A stretch of DNA of 64,000 nucleotides from a virus. The position numbers were made by a program, and so were the translations under genes. Location: positions 1 through 64,000 of IMG/VR virus record IMGVR_UViG_3300044941_000276. The stretch is one strand, 5' to 3'. Positions 25,134 to 55,900 of this stretch are shown here, in pieces. How positions within the stretch are numbered: position 1 is the first letter of the stretch; every line of letters begins with the position of its first letter. The notes under the pieces are model-generated. The model worked only from the letters and a program-made list of their open reading frames with translations, was not told the DNA's origin and searched no databases.

Positions 25134-27062
25134 TTATTTGTTATTAAAGATGTCAATAGTAGGAGCGTTATTAGATTTAATTGGTCTTCTGTCAAAATTA
25201 AGAGCTTGTTGTTGTAAATAGTAAGCATCATCTGACTGTGGTGGAGTTTCAACTTTCGATACAGTTTCAGCCCCTCTCGATCTCATTGCAAACTCGCTTG
25301 AAGCTGGAGCAAACATTGTAACAACAGCAGCTCCATCTTTTGAAAGAAGTTCTACACCAGTATCGTCACCATATACTTCTTTTATCTTTCTTTCATAGAT
25401 GTCTGCTTCCTCGCCAGTAAGTTTACGAAAAGCGGGGTTTCCTCCTGCCCAACTTCTTGTCCAGTCTGATAACCAACTAGTACCTCGATATTCCGAAGAG
25501 TTAGGTATTACAGCTTTGTATATTACAATAGGAACTACTTCATACGATTCACCTAATTCTTTTTGTAATTTTTGATTTAGTGCTTTTATTTTAGCAAGCT
25601 GTTGTTCTTGTGTGCTATTACCTCTCTCACTCTCAATTTTTTTCATCGCTTCGGCATATCTTTTACCAATTTCAGAATCTTCGTTTATAATATATCTATC
25701 AGTACCTTTTCTTCTTAATGTATAAGTATAAACAAGACTTCTTGGATCATAAGCAAGCTGTTCTCTAGGAGGTACGGGTTTAGCATCGCTCGATGCGCCA
25801 ATAACTCTTGATTTATTAAGATCACCTACTTCATTTATACGAGTATTGATTACACTTAATACCGATCGGTTATCTCCAGTACCGGTAAAGATGTCATCTT
25901 TGCCGTACATTATATTAGCAAAATTACTACCTCTTATATTCATAACCATTCCACTGGGAAGAGTGATGTCGAAACTAACAGGATCACCCATAACCGCCTC
26001 GGCTTGATTAAGCGATAAATCTGCCATCTTATTACTACTACCCCCTGAACCAAGATTATTACCTATAGAAGCACCGTCTTTATTTTCATATTCGTATATA
26101 TGTTGTCTATTCATACTAGATACTAAGTATTGATTTACAACAGCCGATATGTTATCGGAAGTAACTGGTCTACCCGATCTCATGAGATACATAACAGCGT
26201 TACTTTTCATAGTATCTATTTCCTCTTGAGTAAATGATTTCATCAGTGTATTAAACGCTTCTTGTAATCTTGAGTAATTATCTTTTAATCTATACCCTCC
26301 TTCTGAATTAATTTCATATAAACTTCCATTTATTTCTCTAATATCAAAAGATTTATTATCTTTTCCTGTTAATTTGTAACCAACATTAGCAAAAACATCT
26401 CTTACTCTATTTCTTAATTGATCACCATTAACTCCCCAGTTAATATAAGCATCAAGATCATATCTCCCAGCTAATTCTGGTACGTAATCCCTTAAATCAT
26501 TAAGTTCTTGTACACTAACCGGACTATAACCAGCTGCTTGATATTCGTCTAGTTTATCGATGGGTATTGTTTTAATTTCATTTTTATTATTTTTTACCAT
26601 CATCGAGTCTTCTTTAACTACATATTGTCCAGTTATTCCTTTTTTAGCTGCATCTTGATAAGCTTGATCGGTTCTGCTTTTTGAAACAATAAGTTCATTT
26701 AAAACACTTGGGGATGTAAGTTTAGCATATCCGTTCATAATAGCTTGATATCGCTCGCTATTTCCTAATATATCAAGATCACTTAAAGATTGTAATTGAG
26801 AATCGAGGGCTTTTTTCATTTGATATAGCTGATTTACTTCATTTGTGTGACCTTTACCTTTTAATTCGGCTATCATTCCGTCAATGTTTGGAGATAATTT
26901 AGATTTATCTATATTAGGAAATTGAGCAACAGGTGCAGGTTGAAGAGCTATTCCTGTTTGTCTTGGTTTAAAAGTAGATCTATTGGTCATAGTAATAAAA
27001 TTACTACCACCACCGATCATTCCTCCCGATTGATAACGTTTTTTAAATCTCAGCAATCTCAT
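25134..27062 (-). CDS. Probable virion cargo protein with Gly-Gly leader motif
   Basis: A 642-residue protein of unrecognised fold. Its basic N terminus, MRLLRFKKRYQSGGMIGGGS, carries the aromatic-x-x-Gly-Gly motif (Gly13-Gly14) that recurs across this region. The body is mixed helical and beta with a Gly/Ser-rich linker near residue 345 and a disordered Gln/Asn-rich C terminus. No enzyme motif is visible. It overlaps the upstream coiled-coil gene by 4 bases (ATGA) and precedes the helicase giant by 7 bases, in the position where crAss-like phages place proteins stored in the tail or capsid and ejected with DNA. The cargo role is inferred from position. Confidence 0.6.
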   Translation of the reverse strand: MRLLRFKKRYQSGGMIGGGSNFITMTNRSTFKPRQTGIALQPAPVAQFPNIDKSKLSPNIDGMIAELKGKGHTNEVNQLYQMKKALDSQLQSLSDLDILGNSERYQAIMNGYAKLTSPSVLNELIVSKSRTDQAYQDAAKKGITGQYVVKEDSMMVKNNKNEIKTIPIDKLDEYQAAGYSPVSVQELNDLRDYVPELAGRYDLDAYINWGVNGDQLRNRVRDVFANVGYKLTGKDNKSFDIREINGSLYEINSEGGYRLKDNYSRLQEAFNTLMKSFTQEEIDTMKSNAVMYLMRSGRPVTSDNISAVVNQYLVSSMNRQHIYEYENKDGASIGNNLGSGGSSNKMADLSLNQAEAVMGDPVSFDITLPSGMVMNIRGSNFANIMYGKDDIFTGTGDNRSVLSVINTRINEVGDLNKSRVIGASSDAKPVPPREQLAYDPRSLVYTYTLRRKGTDRYIINEDSEIGKRYAEAMKKIESERGNSTQEQQLAKIKALNQKLQKELGESYEVVPIVIYKAVIPNSSEYRGTSWLSDWTRSWAGGNPAFRKLTGEEADIYERKIKEVYGDDTGVELLSKDGAAVVTMFAPASSEFAMRSRGAETVSKVETPPQSDDAYYLQQQALNFDRRPIKSNNAPTIDIFNNK

Positions 27063-28438
27063 CGTATATTAGCTAATTTGTTTAATAAACTATTGATTCT
27101 TTTTAAACTATTGTCTTGTCTTGATCTTTCTAGTTTTAAAGCTTGTTCTCGTTCTTTCAAATATACTTTATCTTGAACAGTCATTTCTTTTTTATTCTTT
27201 TTTTCTATCATTCTTAGTTTAGATTTGTGACTTTCAAGATCTTTTAGTTCTTCAAGTGTCAAGCCTCCTTTTTTATAAGTTTCTACTCCCATAGAATTGA
27301 GTACGCCAGCTCCTTCTTTTTTGTAAGATGTAACTGGTATCATGCCTTCCCCTGGACGCCGTCCTCTAAGGTTCATTTGTCTTTCTTGCATATATTGTGA
27401 AAAGAGAAGTTGAGCTTGCTGCTCCCATCTTTTTTTGTTCTCTTCGTAATCTTTATTTGCATCGTCGTAATCTTGGTTAGCTTTTTCTATTAATGGACGA
27501 TATCTTTCAACTATTTTTTCTCTCTCTTCATCAGTAGTAGCTTTAGCTATATCATTTTGATAATTTTTTAATATTTCATTTTTTTCTTTTGTTGATTCTT
27601 TTAATTTTTCAGCGTATTCTTTAATTTTATTATTTACATACGATTGAGTGTATTGTTGTATTTCTAATGCCGCTTGATTCTGAGCATTTAAGTCATTGAT
27701 TTGATTATCATATTCATTACCATATGCAGCATCGACCATTAATTTTACTCTTTCAGCATCGTTCATCTTTTGTTCCTCAAAATTAGCTTGAGCTGCTATA
27801 TTTTTTGCGTCTATTAAATCATTTTCAAAATTAAGTCTATTTCTATTATTTTTATTTATAGCATCTGTTTGATACAAATAAGCTTTAGATAATTGATCTT
27901 GTATATTACTTAAAGTCTTCTCTCTAAAATCGTTTGTGTTAGCTTGTTGAGCTGTGCTTTGAATAATATTAGCGTGTTGATCAGCACTATTAATATTTGT
28001 AATATTTTGATTTGCTATCTGTTGATTAATTTTATTTGGATCAAATGTCATAGGTTGAGGTACAATGTCATCTCGATATAATTTATTTTTTACTTCAAGT
28101 GTTCTTTTATTAGCTTGATTTAATAGATGTTCATAAAGATCCCTTCTAAAGTTTTCGTTAGTTTTATAAAACTTATCATTACCATCTTTGTTTTTACTTA
28201 CTATTACTTGAGTTTCGACTTGAGACTCGTTTGGTGTTTCTTTAGACTCGGTTATTATTTGACCGCTTTCCGGTAAACTTCCAGACTTCATACTTTCTAA
28301 TCTATTCTTCATGGAGTCAACAAGGCTTTTTTGAGCTATATCGGTTATGTTATTTTTTATTATAGGATCTCTTCTAATGGGTGTAACATCACCAGAAGAC
28401 AAAGAAACGGGTCGATCTCCCTTATTTTGAGAAACCAA
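27059..28438 (-). CDS. Coiled-coil probable cargo protein; N terminus probably extended through an A10 tract
   Basis: As written, the longest start is TTG at 28438 (459 residues). The frame continues upstream without a start codon through NSFINRLKGGLVSQNK to a stop at 28493-28495. An ATG at 28504-28506 opens MNVFKKK in another frame and reaches an A10 run on the minus strand. Changing the run by +1 or -2 would fuse the two into a product with a basic leader and a Gly-Gly motif like its neighbours. The body is rich in Gln, Asn, Lys and Glu, with long coiled coils (about 150-360). A second motif, TYKKGGLTLEE, lies near residue 390. No enzymatic signature was found. It lies between two other cargo candidates. 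Either a sequencing indel or slippage explains the start. Confidence 0.65.
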   Translation of the reverse strand: MVSQNKGDRPVSLSSGDVTPIRRDPIIKNNITDIAQKSLVDSMKNRLESMKSGSLPESGQIITESKETPNESQVETQVIVSKNKDGNDKFYKTNENFRRDLYEHLLNQANKRTLEVKNKLYRDDIVPQPMTFDPNKINQQIANQNITNINSADQHANIIQSTAQQANTNDFREKTLSNIQDQLSKAYLYQTDAINKNNRNRLNFENDLIDAKNIAAQANFEEQKMNDAERVKLMVDAAYGNEYDNQINDLNAQNQAALEIQQYTQSYVNNKIKEYAEKLKESTKEKNEILKNYQNDIAKATTDEEREKIVERYRPLIEKANQDYDDANKDYEENKKRWEQQAQLLFSQYMQERQMNLRGRRPGEGMIPVTSYKKEGAGVLNSMGVETYKKGGLTLEELKDLESHKSKLRMIEKKNKKEMTVQDKVYLKEREQALKLERSRQDNSLKRINSLLNKLANIR

Positions 28439-28484
28439 CCCTCCCTTTAATCTATTTATAAAACTATTAGTTAATTCTTCAGAC

Positions 28485-28494
28485 TTTTTTTTTT
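28485..28494 (-). other. A10 homopolymer at a frame junction (slippage site or indel)
   Basis: Ten consecutive T on the plus strand (A10 in the coding sense) lie exactly where the frame from the ATG at 28504-28506 must shift to join the 459-residue coding frame. In the present frame the short ORF stops at 28471-28473. One extra A, or two fewer, removes that stop and gives a continuous protein with a leader like its neighbours. Confidence 0.55.
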
Positions 28495-28506
28495 AAACAC
28501 GTTCAT

Positions 28507-28630
28507 ATCTTTATTAATAATTAATGATTACAAAATTAAATTATTTATAGGATAACTCTTATTATTTTTTATTTAGTACTTTATTTATTTAAGAGTTAAT
28601 TTTTTTATTCAACCTATTTAATGATTGTTT
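28507..28630 (-). promoter_or_regulatory. AT-rich intergenic region with a weak inverted repeat
   Basis: With the ORF start region, this is one of the longer non-coding gaps in the minus-strand operon. It is almost pure A/T and contains a 9-bp inverted repeat, TAACTCTTA (28553-28561) and TAAGAGTTA (28590-28598), separated by 28 bases. It probably holds the promoter for the cargo and polymerase operon and possibly a weak terminator for the upstream gene. No clear TAnnTTTG box was identified. Confidence 0.35.
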
Positions 28631-30814
28631 TTATGGATTATTCTTTTGTATCTTATTTATATTTCTTCCTTGATTAAAAGCTGTTGTAGTAGCATCATAT
28701 AACCTACCCGCGCCAATAACAGTGTTTTTAGCTATATTTGAAATATTATCACTTAATTTAGACCAAAAACCTGGACCTTTATCTTCAAGTTTAGCTTTTG
28801 GTTGAGGTTGAGGTTTAGGTTTAACATTTTGAGAAGGTGATCTAGTTAAACCAAATTGTTCTTCTGCCCTTTGTGTATAAGTAAGTCCCTTTTTACTTTT
28901 ATCTATAGGGTCAAGTTTTACAAAGTTTTTAGCTTTATTACTAATACCCATAATAACTTGTCCCAGATTGAGTAATATATTGGCTACCTCCGGATCTCTA
29001 AAAAATTCACTTGGATCATTTTGATATTTTTTTACAGCATTGTTTAATGTATCGCTAATATATGTCGCATCGGAAGCATTATACAATCCTGTTGCTGTAA
29101 TTGCTCCAATGATTACATTTCTATTAGTGACTATATCTTTTAATTTTTTAAACACTCTTGGTAAAAGAGCAACGTCGCCTACTATAGGTACGATGCTGGC
29201 AATGTTTGCTCCTGCGTTAGCTGCGCTGTATAGAAAATCGTTAATTCCATAACTTTCACCTTTTTTCTGTCTTAACAGATATCTAGCCCTTTCATCAAGT
29301 CCTTGTGAACCAATAGCGGCAACACCAGCGCTAATAGGTTCTGGACTTATTATAGATAAAGCGTCAGCGACAGCTGAAGCAAAGTATAATTTATCAGGAT
29401 CATCCCAAAAAGATTTATCAACCTTATTATTGTCTCTATTTCCAGGTTTATCCGTTACAACTTTAGCAGTATCAGATTTAACACCGGATGAATCTATTTG
29501 TGTATTTCTAGTAGTTGTATCGGTTTGAGTTTTTGTTTTTAGTTTAGCAATTTCAGCTCCTGTTTGATATAAAACAAGTCCTCCATTTTTATTTGAAGGT
29601 ACTTTGTTTTTTGCCACATTGGTATTTCTTCTATTTTCATTTTGAAACAGTGTTCTTTCTAATAAATCGTCGGTATAAAATCCATCACCTTCTAATAACT
29701 GAGAAGTTCCTTTTTTAAACGGAATTAATCTATTATTTCCAGGAAAATATCTATAAGTAACTGTTCCTATATTATTACCTACATCAACATCTAAATCATA
29801 AACTTCTCCAATTTTAGGAACGTTTTGTTTTTTATATCCTATGATTTCTAAAAGAGCTTCTTTTATTTGTTGATCAGTAAATTTGTTTAATTCTTCCATC
29901 ATTTTTTTGTGAAATTTTATATACGCATCTCCTTTAGCTGTTTGCATCTTATCCATAAGATAAGCCTTCTGATAATATAATCTTTTAATTGGAGAAAGAC
30001 TATTGAATTCTTTTTCAATAGTTACATAAGTTTCCGGTTTATATTTAGGTTGTCTTCTAGACGGTTTTTCTTCTTTTTTAACGGGTTCCTCTTTCGTTAC
30101 ATCAGGTTTCGTTACATCAGGTTTAGAAACAGGTTGTTCTTCAATAGGATCTTGTTTAACCGATTCTTGTTTAGCCGGTTCTTCTTTTTTAGGAAAATAT
30201 TGATCAAGTAAAGAACTATCGTTAGCTACAGCATCGGAAACAATATTATGAATAAGTTGTGCTTTATTTTCACCAAAGTTTCCTAATTGTTTTAGTATAT
30301 TAGGTTTATCTTTAGTAAAGTTTTTTCCAGATCCTACTGATGTATTCCAACCTTTACCAAGATATTCTATCTGTCCGTTTTTATATACTCTTATTACTTT
30401 ACCTTGCGTGTTAGCAAGATTACTAATTTCTTCTCTACCTCTTACAGCTCTACGAGATGTATCTTTTCCAGTTATTTTATTAACAAGATCAAAGTATTCG
30501 GTACCTGTAAGGTCTACATAATCAACTCCCGACGGTACTCCGTTTCCAGTTACTCCTTTTTGATAAAAGAGAGTACCTCCTTTCTCAAAGGACTCATAAC
30601 CAAAGGTTGATTCAATAATATCTCTTGCTGCAAGTTCATGCATCGTCTCATATACATAATCTTTAAATTGATTATATGTCATATCAGGATAAGCAGATCG
30701 AAAATCAAAATCCTTTAACATATAATCTAACGCTTGTTCGTCATATTCTGTCCACACAGGTTTACTTTCTGTCCCGAGTGCACTTTGTATATTATTTAAT
30801 ATCAAATCTTTCAT
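28631..30814 (-). CDS. Probable virion cargo protein, 727 residues, with two Gly-Gly motifs
   Basis: The protein has a helical N-terminal region and then FGYESFEKGGTLFYQKG (Gly79-Gly80). A low-complexity Lys/Glu/Pro linker follows near residues 208-255 and includes a direct repeat, KPDVTKPDVTKEEPV. A second motif, NKNGGLVLYQTG, lies near residue 418. The C-terminal third has a hydrophobic, small-residue segment (ANIASIVPIVGDVALLP) like membrane-active parts of injected or toxin proteins, and ends basic. It overlaps the lysin-candidate stop by one base (TAATG). No catalytic site was found. Its position next to the other cargo candidates and its repeated motif favour a packaged protein; alternatives are a tail-tape or minor structural protein. 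Confidence 0.6.
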   Translation of the reverse strand: MKDLILNNIQSALGTESKPVWTEYDEQALDYMLKDFDFRSAYPDMTYNQFKDYVYETMHELAARDIIESTFGYESFEKGGTLFYQKGVTGNGVPSGVDYVDLTGTEYFDLVNKITGKDTSRRAVRGREEISNLANTQGKVIRVYKNGQIEYLGKGWNTSVGSGKNFTKDKPNILKQLGNFGENKAQLIHNIVSDAVANDSSLLDQYFPKKEEPAKQESVKQDPIEEQPVSKPDVTKPDVTKEEPVKKEEKPSRRQPKYKPETYVTIEKEFNSLSPIKRLYYQKAYLMDKMQTAKGDAYIKFHKKMMEELNKFTDQQIKEALLEIIGYKKQNVPKIGEVYDLDVDVGNNIGTVTYRYFPGNNRLIPFKKGTSQLLEGDGFYTDDLLERTLFQNENRRNTNVAKNKVPSNKNGGLVLYQTGAEIAKLKTKTQTDTTTRNTQIDSSGVKSDTAKVVTDKPGNRDNNKVDKSFWDDPDKLYFASAVADALSIISPEPISAGVAAIGSQGLDERARYLLRQKKGESYGINDFLYSAANAGANIASIVPIVGDVALLPRVFKKLKDIVTNRNVIIGAITATGLYNASDATYISDTLNNAVKKYQNDPSEFFRDPEVANILLNLGQVIMGISNKAKNFVKLDPIDKSKKGLTYTQRAEEQFGLTRSPSQNVKPKPQPQPKAKLEDKGPGFWSKLSDNISNIAKNTVIGAGRLYDATTTAFNQGRNINKIQKNNP

Positions 30815-31425
30815 TATTTTATAAGATCGTTTTCGTTAATTAACGTATAGGTAAATCTTTTTTGACCGGATAACTTGCAAAGATTTATAAATTCTTCAAA
30901 TTCTGACTTACTTCTAAACACTTGACAACCTGCACTAAAAGTATCAATTGTTTCTGTAATATCAAACCAAGGGGAAGCTCTATGAATATTTAATCCAAAT
31001 AAACCTTTGTCCGATCCTACAAAATCATGTCGGTCATCTTTATTGTTATCTCTATAGACTTCTACAGGAAGTACTTGTATCAGCGCTTCATGTCTAAATC
31101 TACCTTTACCATGAAAACCTAATGTGTAGGCGTCAATATATTGTCCAGGTTTCAATATAGCAGCACCTTTTTGATTAAAAGGTTTCAATAACCAAGGTAG
31201 TCCGGGCTCTGTTGTAATAATATATCTAAAATAACGTTCTAACCGATTATCTTTATCCAACCAAAACATAAATAAACTATCATTAAAAGTATTATTACTT
31301 TTAATATTGTTTCGTATGGATATTATGTTAGGTCTATCGTTGTATAATCGATATCCCAACTTATTTGCTGTCGGTATTATCCTGTTTGTTATCAGTCTTG
31401 CCTGCGGGGTTTTCAAGTTCATCAT
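30814..31425 (-). CDS. L,D-transpeptidase-like cysteine hydrolase, probable endolysin
   Basis: A 203-residue protein whose C-terminal half contains GLFGLNIHRAS followed by DTFSAGCQVF. This places His148 and Cys167 like the H-x(14-17)-S/T-x-G-C signature of YkuD (L,D-transpeptidase-like) enzymes, which act on peptidoglycan peptides. No signal peptide is visible, so export would need the adjacent holin candidate. The start overlaps the holin candidate by 65 bases, and a second Met follows directly. Context (patatin, holin candidate, then this gene) supports peptidoglycan degradation at lysis. The motif is clear, but the exact bond cut is unknown and the usual Asn after Cys is replaced by Gln. 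Confidence 0.55.
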   Translation of the reverse strand: MMNLKTPQARLITNRIIPTANKLGYRLYNDRPNIISIRNNIKSNNTFNDSLFMFWLDKDNRLERYFRYIITTEPGLPWLLKPFNQKGAAILKPGQYIDAYTLGFHGKGRFRHEALIQVLPVEVYRDNNKDDRHDFVGSDKGLFGLNIHRASPWFDITETIDTFSAGCQVFRSKSEFEEFINLCKLSGQKRFTYTLINENDLIK

Positions 31426-31741
31426 TTTTTATAGTTGATCCAAAATAATACGAAATTATAATACTTCTTTCTGTAAGTAAGTTACTTAAAATCATTGTTA
31501 TAAGAGCCAAAATAGCATTGGCAGCTCCAGGTGATATTGCTGGTACGGTTAATTTAATATCTTGATATTCAAAAGAAAACTTATTAGACCCAGAGAACAT
31601 CAAAGCTAATGATGCAATAAGAATTAAACTCAATATTAGCTTTGTGTTGTTGAATAATTTTAGAGCTATGTTTCTTTTTAATAACCCATTGGTACCTATA
31701 TCAATTTTGTCTTTTCGCTTTATCCACCGCGATAATATCAT
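31361..31741 (-). CDS. Two-helix membrane protein, holin candidate
   Basis: A 126-residue protein with a basic N terminus (WIKRKDKID), a first hydrophobic helix at about 35-50 (LILSLILIASLALMF), a short extracytoplasmic segment, a second helix at about 70-90 (NAILALITMILSNLL) and a charged, polar C-terminal tail. Size, two membrane helices and position between a phospholipase and a peptidoglycan-hydrolase candidate fit a class II-type holin. It overlaps the patatin gene by 41 bases and the lysin candidate by 65, implying tight coupling. There is no sequence-family match that I can name, and an antiholin or other membrane protein remains possible. Confidence 0.5.
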   Translation of the reverse strand: MILSRWIKRKDKIDIGTNGLLKRNIALKLFNNTKLILSLILIASLALMFSGSNKFSFEYQDIKLTVPAISPGAANAILALITMILSNLLTERSIIISYYFGSTIKNDELENPAGKTDNKQDNTDSK

Positions 31742-32543
31742 TTTCTATTTTTAATTTTAATTGCTCTCCAAAATAAGATAACTCTTGCATTTTACTTAAA
31801 TCATCCATTGCAATATAAGGAATATCTATATCGTAATTCTTATATCCAAATTTACCTTGACATTGTTCTATCACTATATCGTGAGAACTGTCCATAAACG
31901 CACTTATTAATGGAGTACGACCCCATACTAACCATTGTCCAATACCCCAATTCTTTGGTCTAAATGATTCGCTAGTACGACCTGTACCTAAGTTAATGAT
32001 AGTACCATCCCATCCTTCTCTTTCAAACTCTCTTACCAATATCCCCGATGGATTATTAGCATACACACCACCATCAACAAGACACCCTCGGTTCCATTCA
32101 TGACATCCAAAGAATGTTGGTGCAGCACAAGATGCTGCAATAGCATCTATTAAAAGTACATCTTTAAACTGTGGTTTATATGATTTAAAAAGAACTGGTT
32201 CTCCTTTCACTGTATCGTAAGCAGTGAGAATCAATTTGATTTTTAAATCTCCTAATTTTACATCACCTATTACTTTTCTTAATTCTTCATATAAGTTTTG
32301 AGTAGAATATTTAGCACTCAATGTTCCTGGTAGAAACCTTGATTTTTTAAAAGCTGAGGTAGCCAATTGATTATACAGTTGGGTAATCTCAGAAGGTTTC
32401 TTACCAATGGCTAATAACCCAGCAATTATACTTCCTGTAGAAGTACCAGCAACTACATCCCAAGTCTCGTTTTCAAAAGCTTTTAGAGCTACGGTGGTAA
32501 GTAATCCTCTTATACCGCCCCCATTTAATGATAATCCTTTCAT
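31701..32543 (-). CDS. Patatin-like phospholipase
   Basis: A 280-residue protein with all patatin family elements: glycine-rich oxyanion loop LNGGGIRG at 6-13, nucleophile elbow GTSTG with Ser35, and the catalytic aspartate in LVDGGVYANNP (Asp157), giving the Ser-Asp dyad of patatin lipases. Such enzymes cleave acyl chains from membrane phospholipids. It begins with an ATGA overlap after the PAS/membrane gene and overlaps the holin candidate. In a lysis cassette it could break down the inner or outer membrane in place of a spanin. Patatin effectors are also known in abortive anti-phage systems, so an exclusion role is an alternative. The family call is firm; the biological role is inferred. 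Confidence 0.85.
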   Translation of the reverse strand: MKGLSLNGGGIRGLLTTVALKAFENETWDVVAGTSTGSIIAGLLAIGKKPSEITQLYNQLATSAFKKSRFLPGTLSAKYSTQNLYEELRKVIGDVKLGDLKIKLILTAYDTVKGEPVLFKSYKPQFKDVLLIDAIAASCAAPTFFGCHEWNRGCLVDGGVYANNPSGILVREFEREGWDGTIINLGTGRTSESFRPKNWGIGQWLVWGRTPLISAFMDSSHDIVIEQCQGKFGYKNYDIDIPYIAMDDLSKMQELSYFGEQLKLKIENDIIAVDKAKRQN

Positions 32544-41149: not shown

Positions 41150-41350
41150 CTAATTTTTAACGTATTCTTTTTTTCTTGCACGCTGTTTCATTCTAACTTG
41201 GTGCATATATTTTCCTAAATTTATAAAATCATCTTCAGATGAAGCTGATTTTGCCATTTCAATAAGCTTTTTAGTTTCTACTCTTGATATAACTAATTCC
41301 CCTCCTCTTAGATACATTTGAGGATTTCCGTTATGATCAAGAAGTACCAT
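41150..41350 (-). CDS. Small basic protein with GGELVIS motif
   Basis: The preferred start is the ATG at 41350, one base after the upstream stop (TAATATG), giving 66 residues. An ATG at 41392 would add 14 residues but overlap the previous gene by 41 bases. MYLRGGELVISRVETKKLIE is followed by a basic helix (MKQRARKKEYVKN). The segment parallels VGEIIIRDNYAKEINRLVDE in the 119-residue protein two genes upstream, so the two probably share a small domain. Function is unknown. Confidence 0.6.
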   Translation of the reverse strand: MVLLDHNGNPQMYLRGGELVISRVETKKLIEMAKSASSEDDFINLGKYMHQVRMKQRARKKEYVKN

Positions 41351-41351
41351 A

Positions 41352-41666
41352 TTAGCCCCCGGTGGCTTTAATAAGTTTTTTTTTGATTTCATTTATAGTA
41401 TTGTTATTAAAAAACGGATAAGTTTCTATAGCATAATACGCATCATATTCTTCTACTTTTTGATTAGGTTTCATATAGTAACTAGTTATAACTTGAAAAT
41501 CTTTGTCAGTAAATATAACTTTTATAGGGAATTTCATTCCCGATGTATGAATATGTTTTGTGTTGGGAAAAACAAATATTTCATTGGGTGATATTTTACT
41601 ATGACCTAACAAACCCTTTTTCTTTTCTTCGATGGTATTAAATACTGTAATTTTAAAGTCTCTCAT
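41352..41666 (-). CDS. DUF192-like protein ending in Gly-Gly
   Basis: A start at 41666 (MRDFKITV) gives an exact ATGA overlap with the upstream stop; 104 residues. KKKGLLGHSKI followed by IFVFPNTKHIHTSGMKFPIK and VIFTDKDFQVI matches the DUF192 (COG1430) pattern of GLM...MLFVF...H-T-x-x-M-x-x-P-I-D-V-x-F. The family has no firmly known biochemical role; most cellular members are exported, but no signal peptide is seen here. The last two residues are Gly-Gly, which is notable in a region where Gly-Gly motifs recur. The family call rests on pattern recall. Confidence 0.6.
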   Translation of the reverse strand: MRDFKITVFNTIEEKKKGLLGHSKISPNEIFVFPNTKHIHTSGMKFPIKVIFTDKDFQVITSYYMKPNQKVEEYDAYYAIETYPFFNNNTINEIKKKLIKATGG

Positions 41667-42022
41667 CGTTTTAACAAACAAACTCCGTTAATATCACATT
41701 GATTATCTGACAAATTATCTATAACAAACTTAGTCAATTTTCCAAGTTGCAATAGTACCATAGGACATTTACAATCATTATACTCATCAACTAAGCGATT
41801 TATTTCTTTTGCGTAGTTATCCCTGATAATAATTTCACCTACTTCTATTTCAGCAATTTTAAGTTGATTATCGTATCGAGTTGTTTCTATTGGTACTAAA
41901 GGGATACCTTTGTCACCAATGTTATTCCTTTCTCTATGCAATACACCTGCAGTAATTATACCGCCAATCTCATATTTTCGTTTCAGTGTACTAGTAATAT
42001 TTTTAAATACCAATCCCCCCAT
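41663..42022 (-). CDS. Small gut-phage protein with Gly-Gly motif and GVLHRERNN segment
   Basis: A 119-residue protein. KRKYEIGGIITAGVLHRERN (Gly20-Gly21), DKGIPLVPIE, KIAEIEVGEIII and a Cys pair near 78-80 (NDCKCPMV) are followed by QLGKLTKFVI. This order (G-x-LHxxxN, KGIPVV, AEIExxEII, LGKL) resembles a widespread unnamed family in gut phages whose members also begin after a Gly-Gly; this is recalled knowledge, not tested. It heads a coupled four-gene set running to 40801. Its start codon (42020-42022) overlaps by one base the -33 TTG (42022-42024) of the divergent promoter. Confidence 0.6.
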   Translation of the reverse strand: MGGLVFKNITSTLKRKYEIGGIITAGVLHRERNNIGDKGIPLVPIETTRYDNQLKIAEIEVGEIIIRDNYAKEINRLVDEYNDCKCPMVLLQLGKLTKFVIDNLSDNQCDINGVCLLKR

Positions 42023-48942: not shown

Positions 48943-49750
48943 ATATTAATCCTCCATACTCTTTCTTTTCTTTATCCCATTGATCTTCACTGCCCCAATT
49001 ATACACAAAAAGATCGGGATCGATATAACTAGTTTTAACTACTTGAGGTGTGTTATTTAGTTTTTTTGAAACCATAGTACACACATATTTTACTGATTCT
49101 TTGTATGTTTTCTTATCGGTAGGTGTCGGCAAAGACATAAGATACCTATATCCGTAAACGTTAGCTCTAAATGTTCTAAAATCTTTAGATGAGAAATATG
49201 GAGACGTTTCATCTTTAATAAATTTAGTAAGAGTATAATCATCTATATTAAAAACAGGATCATATCCCGATTGATAAATAGATATAACATATTGACTAAG
49301 CTCTTTATCAAGAACAAAATGATTATCTACATGCTTTTTGCCAATAAAATCAAACGATACAATACCATTGGGAGATATTTTTATGTGATTTCGCTCCATA
49401 GTAGTAAGACCATAAGTCTTAGCAAGAACTCTCTTACCTTTTTCTTTGTATTCGGAATAGAAACCCTCAGCGCTATCTTCATTTCCTATTCTGATACCAG
49501 TTTTTAATATAATCAATGTTGCTACTGCACAATTATATCTTATTGATGTTGGGATTGATTTACTGCTATTAATAATATTTCTTAGTTTATTAACAATTTC
49601 GGTATATCTGCTAGCAATCATAGCAACCCTGTTAAATTTTACATCGGTTGACCCATTTACATTCCCGTAAAAACCTACTTCTCGTCCATCTATTAAAAAA
49701 CGATGACTATATTTAACATCTCCTCCCTTTTTAAATCCTATCATTTCCAA
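48923..49750 (-). CDS. DNA topoisomerase IB (poxvirus/bacterial type) with Gly-Gly leader
   Basis: This 275-residue protein begins MEMIGFKKGGDVKY (Gly9-Gly10) and continues into a compact type IB topoisomerase. Catalytic residues are placed as in the family: Arg87 in GIRIGNED, YGLTTMERNHI, Lys138/139 in FDFIGKKHV, Arg192 in KDFRTFRA, and the nucleophile Tyr242 (codon 49025-49027) in NTPQVVKTSYIDP. Such enzymes relax supercoils by nicking and rejoining one strand through a 3' phosphotyrosine. The length matches minimal bacterial and viral members. It overlaps its neighbours by 10 and 20 bases within a run of motif-bearing genes, so it may be packaged to relax or help release the DNA; that is inference. 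Confidence 0.85.
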   Translation of the reverse strand: MEMIGFKKGGDVKYSHRFLIDGREVGFYGNVNGSTDVKFNRVAMIASRYTEIVNKLRNIINSSKSIPTSIRYNCAVATLIILKTGIRIGNEDSAEGFYSEYKEKGKRVLAKTYGLTTMERNHIKISPNGIVSFDFIGKKHVDNHFVLDKELSQYVISIYQSGYDPVFNIDDYTLTKFIKDETSPYFSSKDFRTFRANVYGYRYLMSLPTPTDKKTYKESVKYVCTMVSKKLNNTPQVVKTSYIDPDLFVYNWGSEDQWDKEKKEYGGLIYGRHQV

Positions 49751-49986
49751 TTAACGTTTTTACCCATCGACTTTTTTCTTTTAATTGCTTCAAGTTTATT
49801 ATTATCAGGACAATCAGATAGAGTTGGTCGGCATAATCTTTTCTTTCCAGCTCTATCTCCACCACACGGACCTCGTGATATACAATCTACCCAACCTTTT
49901 CCGCCATTTCTACTAAACCATCCACGCAGTCCTTGCTCTCTTTCTTTATCAAAGATACCGCCTTTTTTAAACTTTAATCCCTTCAT
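49741..49986 (-). CDS. 81-residue Cys-rich basic protein with Gly-Gly leader
   Basis: MKGLKFKKGGIFDKEREQGL (Gly9-Gly10) is followed by GWFSRNGGKGWVDCISRGPC and RLCRPTLSDCP. The GWVDC...PCGG...CRPT pattern resembles a small unnamed Cys-containing domain of large phages and algal viruses (possibly DUF5872; recall only). Four Cys could bind zinc. The start forms an ATGA overlap with the 52-residue gene and the end overlaps the topoisomerase start, so the three are translated together. Nucleic-acid binding is likely from the charge. Confidence 0.6.
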   Translation of the reverse strand: MKGLKFKKGGIFDKEREQGLRGWFSRNGGKGWVDCISRGPCGGDRAGKKRLCRPTLSDCPDNNKLEAIKRKKSMGKNVNWK

Positions 49987-50141
49987 GACTTTTTCTTTCT
50001 ACATTTAGACATGTACCCAGAACGATAAGCGCTGGTTTTTGGACCATATATCTCTACAGCTTTGCGATAACAATCATCCTTAGTACCAGAACCTTTATAT
50101 CGAGGTATCGATTTGCTCTTTTTAAACTTTAATCCTCCCAT
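49983..50141 (-). CDS. 52-residue basic protein
   Basis: A short frame that is certainly read: its ATG overlaps the stop of the 601-residue gene (TAATG) and its TGA overlaps the next ATG (ATGA). The product starts MGGLKFKKSKSIPRYKG and contains GTKDDCYRKAVEIYG and SAYRSGYMSKCRKKK, with two Cys and many Lys/Arg. The segment resembles small domains that occur with the GWVDC and LIRFGQQG types in other large phages. It carries MGG at its start, like the 119-residue protein. Confidence 0.7.
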   Translation of the reverse strand: MGGLKFKKSKSIPRYKGSGTKDDCYRKAVEIYGPKTSAYRSGYMSKCRKKKS

Positions 50142-51946
50142 TATTTTTTAAATCCTTTTAAAGTCTTTGCCAAATTACAACGTTGTTTACTCTTAGTTGA
50201 AAGATTAGATTGCGCACAATATTCTGATATACTCATACCAGCACGTTTAGCCGATGCTGTTAAAGCACCAGGTTTCTTGATTGCATTTTTAATCCAGCCA
50301 CCTTTTTTGAAAGACAATGGTTTCTTTTTTTTATTTTCTTGTGCTTGTTTATGTAATCCCAATCCTAATGTTGCTCCGACAACTGCTTTATGAATATTAG
50401 GATCATCCCAGTTCCATTTTGCAAGATGTTCACGAAATAGTGATTTTACATAATTTGGATAAAATGTTGCTATTTGAGGTTCTGCGTAGTTCAAATCATT
50501 AACAACAACTTTCATATTATCATATCCTTTTTTTATAGAATCTTTAATAGATTTACTCATTGCTGTACTATTATATGGAGGAATAACATCTTTATTATTT
50601 GGTAGCAAAGATTCGTAATACTCTTGAACATTTCTTCTATTATTATTTTTAGTTAGTAATGGGAATATAGTAGGAGAAAATTTTCTATTTTTTGGAAATG
50701 CAAAACGACTATAATCTTTCGCAACTTTTTTAAAAGGTGTTGTGAATATAGCTGGTTCTGGTGCAGTTATATCAATGTTAAATTCGTCACCATCTAATCT
50801 TTCAACCCCTGTACCATGATACTCTAAATTATCAGTTGCTTCTTTTAAACCTTTTCTGGCTTGTTCGGTTTTAGTTGATAACCATAAACCATCAGCTATT
50901 TGTTGATCAGATAATTTTGGATTTATTTTTTGAAAATAAGTATTTGACTTTTCATCATAAATAGCGTTTCTTTTTTTCCAAAATGATTCGGCAGCTTCGC
51001 TTCTGAGATTATCTGATTGCAGTCCTTTACTAGAACTATAGTTGCTAATAATATTATTTAATCTATTATAAACTTCATTTGTAATTCCTTTTCTTTGATA
51101 TTCTGGTTTTAGATTTGCCATTTTTATTTGGGAGGCTCCTTGCCCAACAAAATATTCTCCAACTCTACTTCCGTTTTTATCTTTTAATATTATAGAAAAT
51201 TCACCGTCAGGTTGTTTTTTAATTTTTACTACAATGTCATCTTTAAAGTTAGAAAATTCTTTTATTAAATCTTCTTCTATATTATTTGTTGCAACGCTGT
51301 TATTAAAATCTTTATAATATTTTCTTGCTCCTGGTACTTCTTCCAATATTTGTTTGTACAGATTACTTTCTCTATTGACTTTTATTCCTTGTTCTTCTGC
51401 CTGTTTTATTATATCTAAAAACATTTCGGTGCTATTACGGTATTCTTTTATTACTGGTTTAAACACTTTTGCAGCATCACCAGCAATACCTAACACAGGC
51501 AATATTGCAGCAATAGATATTGGACTAACTGTTCCTTTTGATTTATATTCATTCCAAACATCATAAAGTCCTTTTATATCTCCAATACCAGGTATAAAAT
51601 CAATACCTCCTGTTATAGTTTTACTCAGCCCTCGAGCATTGGTTGCTTCTTGTTTATTAGAATACCCTGTGTATCTTCTAACTGGTTTTCCATAACCAAA
51701 TCCCCCATCATTTGTTGTTTGAGCAGTGGGTATAAAGCTACTCTTGATTTCCACCTCTGGTAAAGTAGCTCCTTCGTATATACCATACTTATATTTTAAT
51801 TCTTTTGCTTTTTCAGGATTCTTTTCTTGATATGATTTCCACATCAATCTGCCTTGATTTGTACTTAAATCAAAAGGAAAACCTCTATCATATCCTACTA
51901 TTTTTTTAGGACTAGGAATATTATTGCCTTTTTGAAATCGTAACAT
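50141..51946 (-). CDS. 601-residue toxin-like virion effector: GNAT plus ADP-ribosyltransferase-like domains
   Basis: The N terminus MLRFQKGNNIPSPK is a variant of the regional leader. Residues 113-165 (GGIDFIPGIGDIKGLYDVWN and a hydrophobic ISIAAILPVLGIAG) resemble pre-toxin segments of polymorphic toxins. Residues about 240-330 look like a GNAT acetyltransferase (LKPEYQRKGITNEVYNRL, then RSEAAESFWKKRNA). Residues 374-500 look like an ADP-ribosyltransferase-type fold: LEYHGTGVERLDGDEFN, AIFTTPFKKVAKDYSRF and PQIATFYPNYVKSLF, as in phage MuF-associated effectors. The end has SFKKGG (549-550) and a basic KPGALTASAKRAGMS tail. T4 Alt is a precedent for an injected ADP-ribosyltransferase. The domain calls are from pattern recall. 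Confidence 0.6.
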   Translation of the reverse strand: MLRFQKGNNIPSPKKIVGYDRGFPFDLSTNQGRLMWKSYQEKNPEKAKELKYKYGIYEGATLPEVEIKSSFIPTAQTTNDGGFGYGKPVRRYTGYSNKQEATNARGLSKTITGGIDFIPGIGDIKGLYDVWNEYKSKGTVSPISIAAILPVLGIAGDAAKVFKPVIKEYRNSTEMFLDIIKQAEEQGIKVNRESNLYKQILEEVPGARKYYKDFNNSVATNNIEEDLIKEFSNFKDDIVVKIKKQPDGEFSIILKDKNGSRVGEYFVGQGASQIKMANLKPEYQRKGITNEVYNRLNNIISNYSSSKGLQSDNLRSEAAESFWKKRNAIYDEKSNTYFQKINPKLSDQQIADGLWLSTKTEQARKGLKEATDNLEYHGTGVERLDGDEFNIDITAPEPAIFTTPFKKVAKDYSRFAFPKNRKFSPTIFPLLTKNNNRRNVQEYYESLLPNNKDVIPPYNSTAMSKSIKDSIKKGYDNMKVVVNDLNYAEPQIATFYPNYVKSLFREHLAKWNWDDPNIHKAVVGATLGLGLHKQAQENKKKKPLSFKKGGWIKNAIKKPGALTASAKRAGMSISEYCAQSNLSTKSKQRCNLAKTLKGFKK

Positions 51947-51951
51947 TTTAA

Positions 51952-52962
51952 TTATTTTTTACTTTTTTCCCATTGTTTAATAAAATCAGCTACTCTTTTA
52001 TCTATTGACATCACATAACTTCTAAGATTCATATTATCAGGCACGCTATATTTAAGTAGCATTTTTACTTTATTACTATAAGGTGTGTTTTCAGGTAAAT
52101 TTATTCTCTTTAAAACTAAATTAAATAGTTTTTTATTCATTGCGTAAAATACATCGGTGTCAAGCCCGTCTTTATCCTTAGTGCAACCACATTTTGATTT
52201 TGGTATCATAGCTCCCTTTTTAGCATAAGTTCCAAAAGCAGGATTAAGAGCTACTCTTTGCAATCGATTAGCCTCTGCCATAGCTTCAGCTTTCTTTTGA
52301 TTAAGTTGATTACTATAATCAAATCTATTCAAAGATGAAATGTTTGCAAGATTGATCTTTCTGTTATTTATATCATCTTGTATTCCATATATTTTTCCAA
52401 TAGGTGTACTTGCAAATATACTAGACGCTACATCTTTAGCGCTATGACCCTTGCCTATATTTTTTAAAGAATTAACAAAATCTTGTACATTACCAGCAAA
52501 AGATAAAGCATCGGCTTTATTTTTCTTTTTTAAACATTGACCTGTTGTAGGATCTATCATAGGCTCTCCTGTAATAGGATCAAGGACGCAATCATCTTTT
52601 GCAAGAGCTGTTTCTCCTATGCTAATAAGATTACCTACCGTTTCTCCTACCATTCCTCCAAGAGGTCCAAAAGCTGCGTTACCTGCTGTACTTAATATTT
52701 GTTTTCTAGTACCTTGAACGAAATGAGCGGTTGGATTATTTTTATTAAAATCGGGATCGATTTTATTTTGAGCTTTAACAGTCAAGATATTTGCTAAATC
52801 CGATCCCATGCTCATAGCATCTTGTTTCAATAAATTTTTACCAATATCTCCTTTATATTTTTCTAACCCGCCTAATCCACCGCTCATAAAATTTTCTAGA
52901 AAAGGTACAGATCCGATACCTGATTTTCCTTTTATATGTCTCTTTGTACGTTTTTTAAGCAT
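51952..52962 (-). CDS. Probable cargo or internal virion protein, 336 residues
   Basis: The very basic N terminus (MLKKRTKRHIKGKSGIGSVP) is followed by Gly/Ala-rich, membrane-friendly segments (GNAAFGPLGGMVGETVGNLI) and Cys-containing parts (KDDCVLDPITGEP, IPKSKCGCTKDKDG). AKKGAMIPK near residue 250 resembles the regional motif. The C-terminal 80 residues are a compact helical domain. It overlaps the muzzle-type gene by 8 bases and precedes the effector by 5. The position right after the muzzle gene matches cargo genes of crAss001-like phages, but no homology can be proven here. Confidence 0.55.
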   Translation of the reverse strand: MLKKRTKRHIKGKSGIGSVPFLENFMSGGLGGLEKYKGDIGKNLLKQDAMSMGSDLANILTVKAQNKIDPDFNKNNPTAHFVQGTRKQILSTAGNAAFGPLGGMVGETVGNLISIGETALAKDDCVLDPITGEPMIDPTTGQCLKKKNKADALSFAGNVQDFVNSLKNIGKGHSAKDVASSIFASTPIGKIYGIQDDINNRKINLANISSLNRFDYSNQLNQKKAEAMAEANRLQRVALNPAFGTYAKKGAMIPKSKCGCTKDKDGLDTDVFYAMNKKLFNLVLKRINLPENTPYSNKVKMLLKYSVPDNMNLRSYVMSIDKRVADFIKQWEKSKK

Positions 52963-55900
52963 CGCTTCTTCTCATTAATGTTAATATATTTTTAATATAC
53001 AAATATTGGTTAGTTTTATAAGTGATCCGTATTTTACAATATTTGTCTCTAATTCTTCTGTTTATAAAGTTAGATAATTTTCTTGTATCGCTCTCATCTT
53101 TTATTACTGTTATATACATGCGATCTTCTTTATATACAGCATCATAAGTAAATAAAGAATTGGCAGGATTTTGTAAAAAAGGTTTTGATCCATTATCTAC
53201 TACGTTTCTGGGACGTATTGTTTGTATATAAGTACCACTGTCAGTAGTATATTCTATGGTATGAGGATATATATGATTGCCAATTATAATAAGATTGTCT
53301 ATTATTACTTGTGTTTGAGCATCAAGAGATGCAACAAATTCAATTACTGTATCGTATTGATTACCATAATAATTGGAATGATCTTCTGACACATAATGTT
53401 GATATATCAGAGAGTCTTTGATACCATATATCTCATCTCTTATATTAAACATTATATCGGGATATATAGGTTTAAAACTTAACCACCTACCTATCGGCAT
53501 TTCATTATACAATAATGATTGCGATACACCATCAGCTAAAAACGAAAACCATATATTTTGTTTAAATGTATCGTAAGTAGCTCTTATTTGTGTGGTTTGA
53601 TATACATCGGGAACATCTATAAACTTTTCGCTTATTGATCTAAGATACTTTTGAACCCTAAGATCAGATATTAGTTCCAATTGATTTCCTCCTACTCTCC
53701 ATATTTTACTTCTATCAATATCTACCCCATATACAGTATTATCGCTAGCTACTACTGAAGCTTGCCAACGAGATCCATATCGTTCTGATAAATAATTAAT
53801 TGCTCCTTCTGGTGGAAGAACTCCAGCTGATTGAAAAAACACAGCGCCTGCGCTGTCTCCAGTTTGAGCAATGCGTTGATTTACAGGAATCATAGCTACC
53901 CCGTGAGAAAACACTACGATTAAACCTTGACCGTTATAAGGTCTTATAGCTACTATATCTCCTACGTGATTTGGATAATCTCTATAATTTAACCCAGAGA
54001 ATCTTCTATATCCATTATCAAATGATTTTGAAACAAATAACTCAGAATATTGTATACGTGTTGAAAAATCAGTTTGTATAAAAGGTATGCGATTTCCTAA
54101 TGATTTATATATGGTATCGCCTTTTACTCTATTATAACCAGTATTGTAATTATCTGATTCTAAAAATTGATATTGTCTCCAAGTATTTTTATTACCAGTC
54201 CATTCTATCTGTTCATATGGAGGGTTGGGTTTAGTATAATATGGAGCCCATTCTCTTATACCTTCTGCTACATCAAATATCTGTTGGTTTCTAATATTTA
54301 TGTTTACATTACTATCTGAAGCAAATGATATCGTAGGTCCCAATCTAACATATCGAGATAAGTTGCCATCGTTCACAAGAGGATCGAGTTGATTTTTATA
54401 TAATCTTCTAAAAGTAATCGATACAAAATTATCTCCATTGTAACCTTCTATTTTACCATTGGTAAGTACTTGACTACTAGCCGATCCTTGATTTTCAGAA
54501 ATCGATTGTTGATTCCAATATGTCCAATGAGTTATTGGCATATAATCCTCTGCTTCTGGAAGATGGGTATCGATAAGAGCTTTACCATCAACTGGACCAA
54601 ATCTTGGATATATATTAGCGTGGGCCGCTACTACTCTTCTTGTAGTTTTTACACTAGCTCCGAACATTTCATATTCTTCATTGGGTGTATCGCTTTTACT
54701 AGATATAAAAAATCCAGACTCAGCATTACCTACTCTTGATGAATAAAAACTGTTATTGTAACCATTAAAAGGAGATAATAAATTTTCATTACTAGTATCG
54801 ATTGTTACACCTACATAATCATTATATGATAAAGGATGATAGCTGTAAGCACCTGATCGATCTCTATTTCCAGTAGCAAACATGACTTTATTGAAAGCTT
54901 GAAATAAAGCTCTACCTGTGAATCTATTTTTAGTAACAGTCGACGAATCTTTATCTATAAACTCAAGCTCTGCACTCTTAATAGTGAGAGTGCGTGTGTT
55001 AGTCGATACCTCTTTATACAGACTAAACATTGAAGGTAATGGTTCAAAATCTCCTCTTGATATACCACTTTCAAAATCTTCAAAGCTATCCATGTTTCTA
55101 GAACCGGCTATATTAGGTTGCGTCACACTATATACAAATTGACTATTTTCATATACTAGCAAACCTTTATCTCTTCCACTTAATCTTTGAGAAAATATAC
55201 CTTTTTCCCCCATAAAATCAGGGCTGATAAAAGCATATCTTTTATTAATATACAATGGTATAGAAGCGTTTTGAGGATAAGCTGCATTATTAAGATCTCT
55301 TACATAATTATTATTATTCATTAAAAACTTTACAGCTTCTACCGAATAACTATATATCGTATCGGTTCTATTAATTTGTCTACCGTTATTTGATTGATTT
55401 GCTTTGTATATACCTGCCGATTCCAGTATGTATTCTGGTGCAGGTATAAACTTAGAATTTAATTCACTATATCCTCTTTTTGACTGATCGGGTATATTAT
55501 TATAAGTAGTTAATTCTCCACCTCCGTCTCCGTTTCCCATTTTTTTATAAGAAGTATCAACATAATCGTTTTCTGGTATAATAAAAGTGTTTATTATTAT
55601 ACCTGATGATATCGCATCGCGTTTTCTTTCTTTTGCTCTGTGAATACGAAAACCCACAGTGTTTTCCTTTATATAATCAGAGACTTCGGGAATGTTAAAT
55701 ATCGGATGGATTATCCCAACACTTCCATTTTCAAGAATCTTATTCAAATAACTTCTTAACGGAAATCGATATATACCTCTTACATTTTCGTAATTATTAC
55801 GTTCATCATAATCAATATCTCCGCTAAGATCAGACATATTATATGACGCATCGTTATATATATTATCGATACCTCTAATTGGAAATACAGGACTCAACGA

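What the first reader, a model, noticed from the sequence alone, without database searches (positions are those of the whole stretch)
28435..28506. A10 tract whose length decides whether a leader joins the coiled-coil cargo protein
On the minus strand, ATG at 28504-28506 reads MNVFKKK and then stops at 28471-28473, while the main frame continues upstream through NSFINRLKGGLVSQNK without any start codon. One extra A or two fewer in the A10 run would join them into a protein with a basic leader and Gly-Gly like its neighbours. Either transcriptional or translational slippage makes two products, or the assembly has an indel.
Basis: seen in the sequence. Interest (0 to 1): 0.68.

Follow-up and report, generated by a model that had tools for sequence, protein, structure and literature searches.

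The report
Phage cargo gene broken at poly-A
In a crAss-like bacterial virus, the gene for a probable injected virion protein has no usable start codon of its own and joins its short leader only if the copying or reading machinery slips on a run of ten A's, which is probably a genuine slippage site but could still be a one-base error in the assembled sequence.

Summary
A10 (28485-28494, minus) is the longest homopolymer in this 105.6-kb crAss-like phage contig. ATG 28506 reads MNVFKKKSLKN*. The 459-aa ORF is open up to a TAA that abuts A10, with no ATG/GTG. A11 or A8 would give MNVFKKKKSEELTNSFINRLKGG...

The 16 codons between A10 and TTG 28438 look coding (0.5% of open off-frame windows score as high). 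TTG lies in the most stable of 11,581 60-nt RNA windows scanned on the late strand. Translation therefore most likely enters this frame at A10, not at TTG.

Runs of nine or more A's are avoided in this genome's coding DNA (one distinct run against 11.9 expected). The two such tracts at genes, A10 and an A9 at 41376, both lie at reading-frame breaks; the A9 splits a DUF192 gene that is one open frame in 25/25 relatives, though a stop-restart could also explain that split.

Best explanation: slippage at A10, more likely by RNA polymerase than by ribosomes. Unshifted product is only an 11-aa peptide, so slippage would set cargo amount, not choose between leadered and leaderless forms. An assembly or population indel is the main rival. 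No close relative exists in the collections searched, so this cannot be settled here.

The parts
28485..28494 (-). A10 tract: candidate slippage site; needs +1 A (or -2) to join the frames
   Evidence: sequence; longest homopolymer in the 105.6-kb contig
28471..28506 (-). leader ORF, ATG, MNVFKKKSLKN*
28493..28495 (-). in-frame TAA that closes the main frame on its upstream side, overlapping the A run
28439..28492 (-). main-frame codons upstream of the TTG (KKKSEELTNSFINRLKGG); the 16 codons from 28486 score as coding
27059..28438 (-). 459-aa coiled-coil ORF as listed from TTG; stands where the C-terminal part of cargo protein C1 lies in relatives
28397..28453 (-). RNA hairpin covering the GG codons and the TTG; most stable 60-nt window of the late strand; more stable than 2000 of 2000 synonymous recodings
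28531..28538 (-). TAATTTTG, match to the Bacteroidota -7 promoter element; the motif is not enriched in intergenic DNA of this genome, so weak
28631..30814 (-). 727-aa ORF, homologous to part of cargo protein C1 (HHalign probability 90%)
25134..27062 (-). 642-aa ORF, homologous along most of its length to cargo protein C2 (97.6%, E 3.5e-12); N-terminus MRLLRFKKRYQSGG
41376..41384 (-). A9 tract at the only homology-defined frame break found in the genome; joining needs -1 A (or +2)
41352..41681 (-). DUF192 ORF ending shortly after the A9; matches Pfam DUF192 positions 1-78 of 96
41150..41392 (-). ORF corresponding to the C-terminal part of the DUF192 protein; fused to DUF192 in the 25 relatives with a match

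Best explanation
The 459-aa ORF is probably the C-terminal half of a crAss-like ejected (cargo) virion protein that has become a separate gene. Its start is the ATG at 28506, with A10 beginning at the fifth codon, in a frame that does not reach the rest of the gene. During expression the tract slips: most likely the RNA polymerase makes transcripts with A11 (or A8), less likely ribosomes shift -1 on the tandem AAA codons. The shifted fraction is read through as MNVFKKK(K)SEELTNSFINRLKGG-cargo; the unshifted fraction ends as an 11-aa peptide. Slippage thus sets the amount of this cargo protein. Shown: the sequence, the frames, coding-like codons up to A10, avoidance of long A runs, the hairpin over the TTG. 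Inferred: that the A10 is real in the phage, that slippage occurs, and that polymerase rather than ribosome is responsible.
For: Main-frame codons between A10 and TTG look coding, while a TAA abuts A10 upstream, so entry is best placed at A10. TTG is buried in the strongest hairpin of the late region, which is stable beyond its amino-acid constraint. A>=9 runs are strongly under-represented in coding DNA (1 distinct vs 11.9), the signature that Baranov et al. 2005 (PMC1088944) tie to slippage-prone runs, and both tracts of this length at genes lie where a shift would join a longer product. The joined leader with GG at residues 22-23 fits the neighbours' leader plus GG pattern. A11 in Citrobacter rodentium tssM1 gives about 20% frameshifted product by transcriptional slippage (PMC4256274).
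Against: One assembled sequence only; no reads. No relative of the 459-aa protein was found in which to see whether the tract and frame break are conserved. The A9 break has an ordinary alternative (TAAT-ATG restart). The hairpin lies 32 nt from A10, outside the usual 5-9 nt of a -1 ribosomal frameshift stimulator (PMC5009743), so its part is unexplained. The leader codons themselves have low coding scores, although seven codons say little.
Confidence: 0.53

Rival explanations
1. Assembly or population artefact: the phage carries A11 (or a mixture of A10 and A11) in frame, and the contig recorded A10. The gene is then ordinary, with a normal ATG start.
For: Long homopolymers are where sequencing, assembly and replication indels fall. 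The only other A>=9 run in coding DNA, A9 at 41376, is also at a frame break. The joined protein looks like a normal leader-GG virion protein.
Against: It needs a true in-frame A11 in coding DNA of a genome that otherwise avoids such runs, or a +2 error from A8. None of the roughly eleven 8-A sense runs in ORFs shows a homology-defined frame break, so the assembly is not generally homopolymer-faulty. The stable hairpin over the TTG is not predicted by an artefact.
Confidence: 0.29
2. Conventional but unusual start: translation begins at TTG 28438, at ATA 28459 or at ATG 28312, and the leader ORF is a chance or regulatory peptide (for example a leader peptide before an attenuator-like hairpin).
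For: TTG is an accepted bacterial start, and would sit right after GG. A short ORF followed by a strong hairpin resembles attenuation architecture.
Against: Codons upstream of the TTG score as coding. The TTG is inside the strongest hairpin. Other late ORFs have a nearby ATG. The hairpin is not followed by the long U run seen at this genome's terminators.
Confidence: 0.13
3. The gene is decaying: a real A10 frameshift has switched it off in this phage.
For: The C1 region is already split into two ORFs here.
Against: The whole 459-aa frame is open with codon usage like other genes, and no other disruption; corresponding cargo genes are present in all 13 relatives examined.
Confidence: 0.05

Closest known systems
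Citrobacter rodentium tssM1 (A11 transcriptional slippage; PMC4256274)
   Same: A long A run just before a premature stop; adding A's restores the full frame; the structural gene looks broken
   Different: There both length variants are needed for function and slippage was measured; here the unshifted product is 11 aa and nothing is measured; phage gene, tract close to the start codon
Shigella spa13 and Thermus dnaX slippage (reviewed in PMC5009743 and PMC1088944)
   Same: Homopolymer-driven polymerase slippage giving a fixed share of frame-shifted product from a structural or replication gene
   Different: Those slip far inside the gene and yield two sizeable products
Campylobacter phage CPt10_0091 methyltransferase (PMC2853527)
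   Same: Phage gene with a frame shift in a poly-A tract for which slippage was proposed
   Different: The frame shift was confirmed there and lies near the gene's 3' end; not a virion protein
Tail-assembly G-T frameshift and coat-protein frameshifts of tailed phages (PMC5009743)
   Same: Frameshifting used to set the ratio of structural proteins
   Different: Ribosomal, at short slippery heptamers, giving C-terminal extensions; here the shift is needed to make the protein at all
Frame-broken RNA polymerase genes of zeta-group crAss-like phages (Yutin et al. 2021, PMC7886860)
   Same: crAss-like late or virion genes with frameshifts and an unknown expression mechanism
   Different: Not linked there to A tracts; a different gene; no evidence here that the window phage belongs to the zeta group

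Membership tests
Transcriptional slippage site (A>=9 type) | Run of nine or more A's inside an expressed reading frame | tested here: met
   A10 starting at the fifth codon after an ATG, in the overlap of leader frame and main frame; expression itself not tested
Transcriptional slippage site (A>=9 type) | Indel in the run joins two coding frames | tested here: met
   A11 or A8 joins them; main frame downstream scores as coding
Transcriptional slippage site (A>=9 type) | Such runs otherwise avoided in the genome's coding DNA | tested here: met
   1 distinct vs 11.9 expected
Transcriptional slippage site (A>=9 type) | Heterogeneous transcript lengths at the run | not testable with these tools
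   needs RNA and DNA reads
Transcriptional slippage site (A>=9 type) | Conservation of run and frame break among homologues | tested here: inconclusive
   no close homologue of the 459-aa protein found
Programmed -1 ribosomal frameshift | Slippery heptamer in the zero frame | tested here: met
   A_AAA_AAA in the leader frame
Programmed -1 ribosomal frameshift | 3' stimulatory structure 5-9 nt downstream | tested here: not met
   strong hairpin, but 32 nt away; only a weak A-U stem nearer
Cargo protein C1 (crAss-like) | Position between the DUF192 gene and C2 plus giant ORF | tested here: met
   same order in relatives, with extra genes between in the window
Cargo protein C1 (crAss-like) | Sequence homology to C1 of relatives | tested here: inconclusive
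   727-aa ORF yes (HHalign probability 90%); 459-aa ORF only weak (3/100 residue shuffles and 5/60 heptad-block shuffles as good), plus position
Cargo protein C1 (crAss-like) | Presence inside virions | not testable with these tools
   needs proteomics

The most novel reading that the evidence does not exclude
This phage uses poly-A slippage as a set-point for late structural genes: the same slippage-prone transcription opens both the cargo gene (A10, +1 A) and the C-terminal half of the widely conserved DUF192 protein (A9, -1 A), with a dedicated RNA hairpin closing off internal initiation at the cargo gene. Similar slippage might explain other frame-broken crAss-like genes whose expression is unknown.
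Probability: 0.2. Interest if true: 0.75.

Novelty: new member of a known kind. Interest (0 to 1): 0.48.

Why it matters
If the A10 is real, gene callers will misannotate this and similar virion genes, and slippage becomes a testable answer to the open question of how crAss-like phages express genes that look broken (Yutin et al. 2021, PMC7886860). It would also be a case in which a phage sets the dose of an ejected protein by slippage. If it is an indel, it warns that single-contig frame breaks at A9 or longer should not be read as biology.

Tried and rejected
Close relatives of the 459-aa protein by DNA, tblastn, peptide-pattern and six-frame searches in phages, IMG/VR and about 43 related records: none usable. 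Bacteroidota -7 promoter motif: present but not enriched in intergenic DNA, so not used as evidence. Hairpin as a classical -1 frameshift stimulator: rejected on spacing. Self-splicing intron or bypass between the 727- and 459-aa ORFs: no Rfam hit in the window, and the spacer is only about 125 nt and AT-rich. A general habit of crAss-like phages: among 1.6 Mb of related loci coding A9 runs are rare, and I saw no second clear gene broken at a long A run. Alternative genetic code: the window phage uses standard stops, unlike many relatives with TAG or TGA recoded; recoding would not open the TAA stops here. AlphaFold on the single sequence: mean pLDDT 55, only long helices confident; no fold search made. 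PDB profile searches: no match. GG as a protease site: plausible, but no paper found that states it.

Full report
What was checked. The window is 64 kb of a 105,641-bp virus record of a crAss-like phage. The capsid protein of its closest named relative (MT835470) matches crAss-like major head proteins, the window phage's portal and terminase match PHROGs, and gene order is shared with MT835470, MT835492 and many IMG/VR records. That second frame is closed on its upstream side by a TAA (28493-28495) that overlaps the run, so a switch between frames can take place only between there and the leader stop at 28471. A11 or A8 would give MNVFKKK(K)SEELTNSFINRLKGGLVSQNK...

Is the stretch before the TTG coding? 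A codon model trained on this phage's other long ORFs gives the 16 codons from A10 to the TTG 5.17 bits. Only 0.5% of open off-frame windows of that length score as high, while 32% of genuine in-frame windows score at or below it. From A10 to residue 42 the frame scores 26 bits against about -21 and -22 for the other two frames, and a 56-codon off-frame stretch stays open 0.3% of the time. So the protein most likely begins upstream of the TTG. Unlike other TTG- or GTG-listed ORFs of the late cluster, it has no nearby ATG in frame.

The hairpin. From 28453 to 28397 the transcript folds into a hairpin that contains the GG codons and the TTG. The 60-nt window there is the most stable of 11,581 on the late strand, terminators included. 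None of 2000 synonymous recodings of the same peptide is as stable (z -5.5), lower than every one of 600 control windows. It is therefore probably a selected RNA element, with the caveat that I looked at it after the fact. It makes initiation at the TTG unlikely. It begins 32 nt after A10, too far to be a textbook -1 frameshift stimulator, for which 5-9 nt is usual (PMC5009743). Its real job is open.

Long A runs in this genome. A10 is the longest homopolymer; the only other runs of nine are A9 at 41376-41384 and an A9 at 96623 outside any listed ORF. Synonymous shuffles predict 11.9 A>=9 runs on the coding sense strand (minimum 7 of 200) against one distinct locus, and 33 A>=8 runs against 14 counted. 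Such avoidance is what Baranov et al. 2005 (PMC1088944) use as evidence of slippage-prone transcription, though replication slippage could select the same way, as those authors note. Both tracts at genes sit at a frame break. The A9 separates a DUF192 ORF from its C-terminal part; in the 25 related records with a match the two form one open frame (one record matches in two pieces in the same frame). It is the only homology-defined frame break found in the contig, a test limited to genes with relatives. Dropping one A would join them with a spacing close to the 83-92 residues of relatives. The A9 case is weaker, because the second ORF can also start at an ATG one base after the first ORF's stop.

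What the protein is. Between the DUF192 gene and the giant ORF, 13 of 13 relatives examined have two large genes: C1 (1204-1946 aa) and C2 (597-638 aa). The window's 642-aa ORF is C2 (HHalign 97.6%). The 727-aa ORF is homologous to part of C1 (90%). The 459-aa ORF stands where the C-terminal part of C1 should be, and aligns collinearly with it, but only weakly. By position these correspond to the cargo proteins of PhicrAss001 (PMC10172136); a PDB profile search does not confirm this by sequence. C2 proteins begin with a basic leader and GG in 13 of 13 cases against an 18% chance rate, C1 in 4 of 13. The joined leader, with GG at residues 22-23, fits that pattern.

Mechanism. Most likely the tract slips. 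RNA polymerase is favoured because the length is in the known range (A11 in tssM1 gave about 20% shifted product, PMC4256274), because phage T7 polymerase slips more readily than the host enzyme (PMC6260861; T7 polymerase is not a homologue of crAss-like polymerases, from general knowledge), and because polymerase slippage yields both longer and shorter runs, as A10 (+1) and A9 (-1) would respectively need. Ribosomal -1 shifting on A_AAA_AAA is possible for the A10 only. In either case the unshifted product is an 11-aa peptide, so the tract would control dose, not the choice between leadered and leaderless forms.

The main rival is an indel in assembly or population. It is not excluded: one contig, no reads, no close relative. 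Against it, it needs a true in-frame A11 in a genome that avoids such runs, and none of the roughly eleven 8-A runs in ORFs shows a break. I put slippage at about 0.53, the indel at 0.29, a conventional but unusual start at 0.13 and decay at 0.05.

Verdict. A real and well-described oddity, probably a slippage-dependent start of a virion cargo gene, a new member of a known kind. The most novel reading, a phage-wide slippage set-point with a dedicated hairpin, is possible (0.2) but untested.

Noticed in passing
window 41150-41681 (-): DUF192 gene split in two overlapping frames at an A9 tract; one open frame in the 25 relatives with a match. Either slippage, an indel, or a recent split with a TAAT-ATG restart.
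   Followed up: partly
window 28397-28453 (-): Most stable RNA hairpin of the late strand, inside a coding region, rich in G-U pairs (so specific to the minus-strand RNA), far more stable than synonymous recodings; role unknown.
   Followed up: partly
window 27059-30814 (-): Cargo gene C1, a single ORF of 1204-1946 aa in 13 relatives, is replaced here by two ORFs (727 and 459 aa) with about 125 nt of AT-rich spacer.
   Followed up: partly
window 25134-50141 (-), and relatives L103-L114: Many late proteins begin with a short basic leader followed by a (Y/F)(Q/K)xGG-like motif, and some repeat it internally (FKKGG, YQSGG, FYQDGG); GG is universal near the start of C2 in 13 relatives. It looks like a processing or packaging tag; I found no paper describing it.
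   Followed up: partly
window 31701-32543 (-): 280-aa ORF with GGGIRG and GTSTG motifs, resembling a patatin-like phospholipase, close to an endolysin-like ORF (30814-31425, PHROG endolysin match); possible lysis or entry gene. Motifs read by eye.
   Followed up: no
window 52955-57316 (-) against MT835470 76923-70212 and MT835492 108282-100986: The window's 1453-aa virion protein matches those phages in parts 3-4 kb apart, suggesting an insertion (intein, intron or domain) after about residue 100 in the relatives.
   Followed up: no
window 49640-50145 (-): Two small tandem ORFs beginning MGGLKFKKSKS and MKGLKFKKGG lie just upstream of MIGFKKGG of the 275-aa ORF; an apparent family of tagged small proteins.
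   Followed up: no
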